From: Caldifarciminota bacterium
GTDB lineage: Bacteria; Hydrothermota; Tepidihabitantia; SM23-42
Direction of reading: 5' to 3'
NCBI GenBank assembly: GCA_027026255.1
Contig: JALVOT010000004.1
Span: forward strand, 103,061 to 167,060
Length of the DNA: 64,000 nucleotides
Shown: one piece after another, positions 4,915 to 43,955 of the stretch
Position numbering within the stretch: position 1 is the stretch's first letter
How the letters are laid out: every line of letters starts with the position of its first letter
The notes under the pieces: generated by a model
Told to the model about the DNA's origin: nothing
The model's input: the letters and a program-made list of their open reading frames with translations, nothing else
The model's database searches: none
Program-made: the position numbers and the translations under genes

Positions 4915-5045
4915 TGAGTAAACACAGGGGCGTCCCGTCCCGACCCGCCGGGCGAGGACGCCCGGCAAGCTTTTTCTGTAGCCTGGCGTGCTTCTCCCAG
5001 CTGAGGGGCGTCCCGCCCCGAGGTACTGCAGGTCGGGATGTTACG
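4915..5045. repeat. GC-rich dispersed intergenic repeat block (copy 1)
   Basis: A GC-rich block inside an otherwise AT-rich spacer. It holds short inverted motifs such as CCGGGCGAGGACGCCCGG and GGGGCGTCCCGCCCC. Long stretches, including a GACCCGCCGGGCGAGG-type core followed by AAGCTTTTTCTGTAGCCTG, recur near 35560-35610, so this is a dispersed family. Open frames crossing it on both strands are repeat translations with no protein-like character. The rest of 4640-5560 holds the tandem repeat below and no gene that I can see. Confidence 0.8.
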
Positions 5046-5050
5046 CACCA

Positions 5051-5525
5051 GACAAACCAGAATGCAGATCGTTGTAAGTTGTTGGGCATCGAAGCCCGTC
5101 TCGTCGGACGGTTTCGTTGTCAGTGGTTTTTTGTCTTCAGCCGATTAACCACAACCTATAACCAAACCGGCATCGACACCGTATAACGAATAACGATTCT
5201 GTATAAACTGACAAACCAGAATGCAGATCGTTGTAAGTTGTTGGGCATCGAAGCCCGTCTCGTCGGACGGTTTCGTTGTCAGTGGTTTTTTGTCTTCAGC
5301 CGATTAACCACAACCTATAACCAGACCGGCATCGACACCGTATAATGAATAACGATTCTGTATAAACTGACAAACCAGAATGCAGATCGTTGTAAGTTGT
5401 TGGGCATCGAAGCCCGTCTCGTCGGACGGTTTCATTGTCAGTGGTTTTTTGTCTTCAGCCGATTAACCACAACCTATAACCAAACCGGCATCGACACCGT
5501 ATAACGAATAACGATTCTGTATAAA
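5051..5525. repeat. Three tandem copies of a 159 bp repeat
   Basis: Copies begin at 5051, 5210 and 5369 and are nearly identical, with only a few substitutions; the third copy stops just short of the full length. Each unit carries two hairpins: GGGC-ATCGAA-GCCC and CCGTC-TCGTCG-GACGG. A diverged partial relative lies at about 19995-20090 (same TTGGGCATCGAAGCC start and a similar GATTAGCCACAACCTA end). The function is unknown. It could be a mobile intergenic repeat or a multi-copy structured RNA. Confidence 0.9.
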
Positions 5526-35271: not shown

Positions 35272-35337
35272 GACAAACCCCGGTTGACTTTTTCCAACCT
35301 TCGGCTTGATTTTTGAGAGTTATATGAGTTACAAGAG

Positions 35338-35414
35338 AGAGCGGAGCTCTGGAAGGGATCGCTGTCGCGATGGAAGTGAGGACTTCGTCCTGGAAGTTAT
35401 TCGCTGTCGCGAAT
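35338..35414. repeat. Array of four small hairpins separated by GGAAG spacers
   Basis: Hairpins AGAGC-GGA-GCTCT (35338-35350), ATCGC-TGTC-GCGAT (35358-35371), AGGAC-TTC-GTCCT (35379-35391) and ATTCGC-TGTC-GCGAAT (35399-35414) are each followed by a 7-base spacer beginning GGAAG or GGAAT. Stem sequences differ but pairing is perfect in each, so structure rather than sequence is conserved. Confidence 0.75.
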
Positions 35415-35504
35415 GGAATTTCAAATTAAAAGCACCAAATAAACGAGATAAACTAAACAAACCAGAAAAACGCTGATGCTGTACTGAACGCACTTCGCGC
35501 TGTA

Positions 35505-35735
35505 AGCACAGGGGCATCCCGCCCTGACATTTCCATCTGAGCATCCTCTCGCATCGACCCGCCGGGCGAGGACGCCCGGCAAGCTTTTTCTGTAGCCTGA
35601 TTGCCCTTCTTCCAGCTGAGGGGCGTCTCGCCCCAAGGCACCGCAGGTCGGGACGACCTGCAGGCTGAAATGAGTAAGCACAGGGGCGTCCCGCCCTGAG
35701 GCTGGCGCCGGGGACGCCACCAGCGATGTAAATTG
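35505..35735. repeat. GC-rich dispersed intergenic repeat block (copy 2)
   Basis: Shares the CCGGGCGAGGACGCCCGG core, the following AAGCTTTTTCTGTAGCCTG segment and GGGGCGTC-CGCCCC-type palindromes with 4915-5045. A CACAGGGGC motif occurs twice (near 35510 and 35680). With the hairpin array, it fills the gap 35238-35790, in which I see no gene. Confidence 0.75.
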
Positions 35736-35790
35736 TAGGACAACCTGCTGGCTGGATAACTTCAGAAATATCTATTTACAATAAACCTTT

Positions 35791-40786: not shown

Positions 40787-40824
40787 AATAATATATTGAA
40801 ATTTTAAGAAGATGGCGGAAGGAA

Positions 40825-43955
<3,131 letters not shown>

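What the first reader, a model, noticed from the sequence alone, without database searches (positions are those of the whole stretch)
35338..35414. Tandem array of four hairpins with conserved spacers and variable stems
Four perfect stem-loops of 5-6 bp, each followed by a 7-base spacer beginning GGAAG or GGAAT. Stem sequences differ but pair fully, implying selection on structure. It lies between a sigma-54 activator and the Fe-S operon. I know of no named element like it; it could bind a protein or form an RNA with beads of hairpins.
Basis: seen in the sequence. Interest (0 to 1): 0.62.

Follow-up and report, generated by a model that had tools for sequence, protein, structure and literature searches.

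The report
Hairpin-array half of a mobile-like element
Four tandem mini-hairpins next to an iron-sulfur gene cluster are one arm of a dispersed insertion found across a little-known bacterial lineage, apparently a gene-less relic of selfish-looking elements that carry a 'four-helix-bundle' gene whose function is unknown.

Summary
Window 35338-35414 holds four perfect hairpins (5, 5, 5 and 6 bp), each followed by a 7-nt linker (GGAAGGG, GGAAGTG, GGAAGTT, GGAATTT). The genome has seven further, partly decayed copies. A model of the unit finds arrays in 10 genomes, all of the window's order (Candidatus Stahlbacteria/WOR-3). The linker is kept while stems vary by paired changes or are swapped whole.

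Relatives show the complete element: hairpins, a centre, then hairpins in the opposite orientation; the window keeps one arm. In several genera a four-helix-bundle (FHB, PF05635, '23S rRNA intervening sequence protein') gene lies between the arms, and gene-less copies retain what looks like its start codon. FHB genes generally, even on cyanobacterial plasmids, often lie between inverted arrays of short repeats, and array type follows FHB subfamily.

A same-genus relative has the neighbouring genes but lacks the ~495-bp block holding the array, so this is an insertion, not a conserved regulatory RNA.

Best reading: a gene-less relic of an IVS-like FHB element. Mobility and mechanism are inferred; no target duplication or movement was shown, and RNA folding does not favour 'beads' in the window copy.

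The parts
35338..35350 (+). hairpin 1, AGAGC-GGA-GCTCT
   Evidence: sequence; scan
35351..35357 (+). linker 1, GGAAGGG
35358..35371 (+). hairpin 2, ATCGC-TGTC-GCGAT
35372..35378 (+). linker 2, GGAAGTG
35379..35391 (+). hairpin 3, AGGAC-TTC-GTCCT; paired counterpart AGGGC-TTC-GCCCT in copy C8:73736
35392..35398 (+). linker 3, GGAAGTT
35399..35414 (+). hairpin 4, ATTCGC-TGTC-GCGAAT; the best conserved hairpin among the genome's copies
35415..35436 (+). linker 4 plus centre, GGAATTTCAAATTAAAAGCACC, shared with other copies in the genome; corresponds in position to the centre between the two arms of complete elements
35437..35473 (+). degenerate array of AAAC/CCAGA-type repeats; the same motif flanks an FHB gene in the same-genus genome G001 (L243)
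35488..35505 (+). hairpin of the second linker class (ACGCACTTCGCGCT + GTAA); the order GGAA-hairpins then TGTAA-hairpins is also seen beside the FHB gene in G012 C48
35506..35750 (.). cluster of GC-rich dispersed palindromes (GGGGCGTCCCGCCC type)
35279..35773 (.). inserted block (~495 bp, ends approximate) absent from the orthologous intergenic region of G001

Best explanation
The four hairpins are one arm of a gene-less, degenerated copy of an IVS-like element. The complete element has two arms of hairpin-plus-linker units in opposite orientation, and in its gene-bearing form a four-helix-bundle (FHB/S23, PF05635) gene between them. Shown: two-armed architecture, dispersed copies at different sites, presence/absence at one orthologous site, FHB genes between the arms in several genera, retention in gene-less copies of a stretch matching the FHB start, and array type tracking FHB subfamily. 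Inferred: gene-less copies arose by internal deletion; the arms are the ends on which the element's spread depends, probably because the FHB protein (or a host enzyme) recognises the repeated hairpin/linker pattern in RNA or single-stranded DNA; in transcripts the structured arms would allow RNase III trimming, as for 23S rRNA intervening sequences, so that insertions are tolerated. Which enzyme does the cutting and joining is unknown.
For: Own-genome copies and their shared right end. Unit model hits in 10 of 65 genomes of the class, all in families f1/f2 of the window's order. Complete two-armed copies. Linker-defined chains: 67/148 units with stems of at least 4 bp against 0/26 control; among 24 distinct 13-nt hairpins chosen on three pairs, pairs 4 and 5, not used in the choice, are each paired in 20 of 24, with several pair types. 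FHB gene between arms: L079 (G025), L118 (G011), interrupted copy in L151 (G012); PF05635 confirmed for the first two. Centre of gene-less copies ATGAAGGGAATTAAAAC against FHB start ATGAAAGGAATTAAAAC in G011 and MKGIKTFKDLKVL in G014. Empty site in G001. FHB flanks: upstream against reverse complement of downstream, median 12.5 against 7.0 for cross-locus pairs; 17 of 62 loci above the 99th percentile, 0 of 166 control genes. Array similarity tracks FHB protein similarity at sites without similar neighbourhoods: 33% of pairs above 0.5 protein similarity, 0% below 0.35; 0 of 500 permutations reach the cross-side correlation, which is weak (rho 0.10). Cyanobacterial plasmid FHB genes between inverted heptamer arrays. 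Coxiella IVS: S23 ORF inside terminal inverted repeats with tandem heptamers before its start, excised by RNase III (PMC4990558).
Against: No copy in the window's own genome holds an FHB gene, and the window's centre does not itself resemble an FHB start, so for this copy the link rests on architecture and relatives. The copies in G000 look one-armed. Only a few of the FHB loci examined have the GGAA hairpin type; most have other repeats, some have direct rather than inverted arrays, and many fall within the control range. No target-site duplication was found and no movement observed. Absence in G001 could be a deletion. RNA folding favours long-range pairing over beads. The FHB-start match is short (17 nt) and was noticed after the fact.
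Confidence: 0.66

Rival explanations
1. REP/BIME-like palindromes mobilised by a Y1 (RAYT/TIRYT) transposase, unrelated to FHB genes, which merely insert near or in them.
For: Tandem and inverted palindromes with a short constant tag resemble BIMEs; the genome has 5 Y1 transposase genes and 44 of 61 relatives have some.
Against: No GGAA hairpin chains were detected at the Y1 loci fetched; the Y1 gene looked at closely has 22-bp perfect terminal inverted repeats instead, the 'TIRtron' pattern of PMC3733652. Tags are GGAANNN between hairpins, not GTAG or CGTC; stems are not a conserved sequence. Y1 loci were only partly sampled.
Confidence: 0.13
2. A conserved regulatory RNA or DNA site for the divergent activator/Fe-S genes, such as a multi-hairpin RNA or a protein-titrating array with exposed GGA motifs (CsrA-like).
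For: Divergent intergenic position; GGA motifs between hairpins resemble CsrA-binding RNAs (from general knowledge).
Against: Absent from the orthologous intergenic region of G001; other copies lie at unrelated sites and in both orientations; beads are not the predicted RNA fold of the window copy. CsrA presence was not tested.
Confidence: 0.06
3. Mutational by-product: tandem short repeats that a template-switching process keeps turning into perfect palindromes, with no selection on structure and no element.
For: Perfect arms with varied sequences are also what quasi-palindrome correction would give; repeat arrays of other kinds flank FHB genes without hairpins.
Against: Regular 7-nt linkers, an invariant A-T closing pair among the 13-nt hairpins and ordered two-armed copies at many sites need more than a mutational process; it may still contribute to stem evolution.
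Confidence: 0.08
4. The hairpin arrays are independent repeats and FHB elements preferentially insert into them.
For: Gene-less arrays outnumber gene-bearing ones in the genomes examined.
Against: Arrays abut the start and stop of the gene, differ between FHB subfamilies and follow them to other sites; gene-less copies contain an FHB-start-like centre.
Confidence: 0.07

Closest known systems
23S rRNA intervening sequences (IVS) with S23/four-helix-bundle ORF (Coxiella, Leptospira)
   Same: FHB gene between complementary arms; tandem short repeats just before the gene in Coxiella; variable and decaying ORF, gene-less forms known (PMC4990558).
   Different: Here the copies lie in intergenic DNA rather than in 23S rRNA helices, and the arms are arrays of separate variable hairpins with a fixed linker.
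REP/BIME palindromes and REPINs with RAYT transposases
   Same: Short dispersed palindromes in tandem and inverted arrangement in intergenic DNA; thought to be non-autonomous mobile DNA.
   Different: Stem sequence is not conserved, tag is GGAANNN rather than GTAG/CGTC, and Y1 genes are not flanked by them in the loci examined.
Cyanobacterial STRR heptamer repeats; TAACTGA repeats of Beggiatoaceae and cyanobacteria
   Same: Tandem ~7-nt repeats between genes, reported to form a hairpin; function stated as unknown (PMC2670836) or mechanism of spread 'not evident' (PMC4679880). Heptamer arrays flank FHB genes on cyanobacterial plasmids.
   Different: Units are bare heptamers, not hairpins plus linker. 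Identity of the plasmid heptamers with named STRR families was not tested.
MITEs
   Same: Gene-less, two-armed, dispersed, apparently derived by internal deletion of gene-bearing elements.
   Different: Arms are arrays of hairpins, not simple terminal inverted repeats; no target-site duplication found.

Membership tests
IVS-like FHB (S23) element | PF05635 gene between the arms | tested here: inconclusive
   Met in relatives (L079, L118; interrupted in L151); not met for the window copy or any copy in its genome.
IVS-like FHB (S23) element | Two arms of opposite orientation | tested here: inconclusive
   Met in G012, G015, G017, G014 and G025 copies; the window keeps one arm.
23S rRNA IVS proper | Location in a 23S rRNA helix | tested here: not met
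   The array lies at 35338-35414; 23S rRNA is at 40823-43952.
23S rRNA IVS proper | Excision by RNase III | not testable with these tools
   Needs RNA.
REP (GTAG/CGTC palindromes) | GTAG or CGTC tag at one end | tested here: not met
   Linkers are GGAANNN; definition from PMC3733652.
REP (GTAG/CGTC palindromes) | RAYT gene flanked by the repeats | tested here: not met
   No chained units at the Y1 loci fetched; only part of the Y1 genes were sampled.
Known structured RNA (Rfam 15) | Match above the gathering score | tested here: not met
   Only 23S and 5S rRNA in the window.
MITE | Target-site duplication | tested here: inconclusive
   Only one presence/absence pair, and the inserted block is composite.
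CsrB/RsmZ-like RNA | CsrA in the genome | not tested

The most novel reading that the evidence does not exclude
Four-helix-bundle (S23) genes define a widespread class of small selfish elements whose ends are inverted arrays of short repeats, with the repeat type peculiar to each FHB lineage; the Stahlbacteria hairpin arrays and at least part of the unexplained cyanobacterial heptamer repeats would be their gene-less derivatives, and the 23S rRNA intervening sequences one special case.
Probability: 0.4. Interest if true: 0.85.

Novelty: new variant of a known kind. Interest (0 to 1): 0.68.

Why it matters
The four-helix-bundle family is widespread and of unknown function, and short tandem intergenic repeats in cyanobacteria and other bacteria are described as unexplained. 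If the arrays are the ends of FHB elements, both questions get one testable answer, and the hairpin-array form offers a clear substrate on which to test what the FHB protein binds.

Tried and rejected
Rfam search of the window: only rRNA. Exact-pattern scan of named genomes with the window's own right end: none. Generic TGGAAG-spacing pattern: swamped by chance hits, 50 against 57 in the control. Y1 transposase as owner: loci show no arrays. GIY-YIG nuclease as the element's gene: first suspected from G014, but the ORF begins like an FHB and in G012 a GIY-YIG ORF with its own inverted repeats interrupts an FHB gene; 30 GIY-YIG loci showed no comparable arrays by a simple count. RNA folding as proof of beads: not supportive. 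The 15-nt GGAAG repeats in G014 C467 (L084) were set aside as probably coding. No relative of the FHB protein was found in viral contigs.

Full report
1. The observation. The four hairpins and four 7-nt linkers are exactly as described, and a scan of both strands of the window finds perfect stems of 5 bp or more with a 3-4-nt loop followed by GGAAG/GGAAT in register only there. Counting chained units (hairpin closed by A-T, preceded at 7 nt by another linker), the window has 3 and 40 Markov-shuffled windows have 4 between them.

2. It is a dispersed family in its own genome. The 121-bp region has 8 matches in the 2.10-Mb assembly including itself, down to decayed ones. They share hairpin 4 and the centre GGAATTTCAAATTAAAAGCACC. 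Hairpin 3 (AGGAC-TTC-GTCCT) has a paired counterpart AGGGC-TTC-GCCCT at C8:73736.

3. Distribution. A covariance model of two units with three linkers (R1), built from sequences of the relatives G003 and G025, finds arrays in 10 of 65 genomes of the class; all lie in families f1 and f2 of the window's order, none in the other families. Strict filters were used, so weak members may be missed. Named genomes that carry the genus-g2 form are Candidatus Stahlbacteria and candidate division WOR-3 assemblies.

4. Structure is kept, sequence is not. Chains defined by linkers only, without asking for hairpins, gave 71 arrays and 148 distinct units, 67 with a Watson-Crick stem of at least 4 bp, against 13 arrays, 26 units and none in reversed sequences. 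Among 24 distinct 13-nt hairpins chosen for three or more pairs, the outer pair is always A-T; pairs 4 and 5, not part of the choice, are paired in 20 of 24 each, with several pair types. Whole hairpins are exchanged: AGCACGTAGTGCT against ATCCCGAGCATGTCGAGGGAT at the same place, or a hairpin with a loop of about 100 nt.

5. The complete element is two-armed. In G012, G015, G017 and G014 (and with other stems in G025) four hairpins with linkers GGAANNN lead to a centre, followed by hairpins with linkers NNNTTCC. Left and right linkers are often complementary (GGAAGAG/CTCTTCC). The window's array with its GGAATTT centre corresponds to one arm.

6. The gene between the arms. In G025 (L079) and G011 (L118) a gene of PF05635 lies between the arms; in G012 (L151) an FHB gene interrupted by a GIY-YIG ORF does. 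The centre of gene-less g2 copies, GGAATGATTTAAA-ATGAAGGGAATTAAAAC-TGTTCC, contains an ATG stretch that matches the start of the FHB gene in G011 in 16 of 17 bases and in G014 exactly, where the ORF reads MKGIKTFKDLKVL before turning into a GIY-YIG domain. This suggests, but does not prove, internal deletion.

7. FHB genes and inverted arrays in general. At 62 distinct FHB loci of the order, similarity of the 130 bp upstream to the reverse complement of the 130 bp downstream has median 12.5 against 7.0 for pairs taken from different loci; 17 exceed the 99th percentile of those, and 0 of 166 control genes do. The motif differs per locus; some loci have direct arrays (L243, L246). Array similarity goes with FHB protein similarity also where the wider neighbourhood is not alike: 33% of pairs above 0.5 against 0% below 0.35 share an array type; the overall correlation is weak (rho 0.10) but reached by 0 of 500 permutations. 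Some of these pairs may be diverged orthologous sites. On cyanobacterial plasmids, 4 of 11 FHB genes examined (L291, L292, L294, L295) lie between inverted repeats above the 99th percentile of their cross-pairs (13.4), for instance (GGGAGTA)n-FHB-(TCCCTAC)n between nrdB and nrdA in Nostoc edaphicum; one has a direct heptamer array (L293); neighbours in other cases are cas genes.

8. Presence and absence. The same-genus genome G001 has the activator (87% identical), Rrf2 regulator and IscS in the same arrangement, with about 104 bp between the divergent genes; the window has 553 bp, and the block 35279-35773 has no counterpart. That block also holds an AAAC/CCAGA array of the kind that flanks an FHB gene in G001, a TGTAA-linked hairpin and GC-rich palindromes, so it is composite. 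Since its parts are repeated elsewhere in the genome, insertion is likelier than loss, but loss in G001 is not excluded.

9. How it may work. Shown are architecture, dispersal, presence/absence and the association with FHB genes. Inferred: the arms are the functional ends; FHB protein or a host enzyme recognises the hairpin/linker pattern; gene-less copies are parasitic or dead derivatives. Predicted RNA folds favour pairing between arms or between hairpins over separate beads; the G025 element folds far better than shuffles (z -5.0), the window array only slightly (z -1.8). As single-stranded DNA the window's beads are within 0.2 kcal/mol of the minimum. Which nucleic acid is recognised is open.

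10. Comparison. Closest is the 23S rRNA IVS with an S23 ORF, in Coxiella preceded by tandem heptamers and enclosed by a 28-bp stem, excised by RNase III (PMC4990558). REPs are a formal parallel but fail on tag and transposase association. STRR heptamers in cyanobacteria are said to have no known function (PMC2670836); TAACTGA repeats are said to have no evident means of spread (PMC4679880). No paper in the searched library links such arrays to FHB genes, which does not show that none exists.

Noticed in passing
window 5051-5525: Three copies of a 159-bp tandem repeat (98% alike) containing GACAAACCAGAATGCAGATCGTTGTAAGTTGTTGGGCATCGAAGCCCGTC; the same sequence lies beside several hairpin-array copies elsewhere in the genome (L002, L003, L005, L006).
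   Followed up: partly
window 4927-5018, 20206, 35511-35696, 52858: GC-rich dispersed palindrome GGGGCGTCCCGCCC, 7 matches with up to 2 mismatches against 0.43 expected.
   Followed up: no
L074 (G000 C14:146700-150500) 1430-2480: Y1 transposase gene flanked by 22-bp perfect inverted repeats GGGTCAAATCTCGACATTGGAC, a TIRtron-like element.
   Followed up: partly
L151 (G012 C48) 1030-1735: FHB gene interrupted by a GIY-YIG ORF that is bounded by inverted repeats CCCTGTGTAATA/TATTACACGGGGC: one mobile-looking element inside another.
   Followed up: partly
L118, L160, L208, L213, L215, L218: The site just 3' of an SLBB polysaccharide export gene holds FHB elements with different array types in different genera.
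   Followed up: partly
L291, L293, L301: FHB genes inserted between CRISPR-associated genes (cas10/cmr3, cas6/cas4) on cyanobacterial plasmids; L292 between nrdB and nrdA.
   Followed up: no
window 40823-43952: 23S rRNA gene about 200 nt longer than the model, with short extra stretches in the 5' half.
   Followed up: no
L084 (G014 C467) 850-1100: 15-nt repeats built on GGAAG with some palindromic units, probably inside a coding repeat.
   Followed up: no
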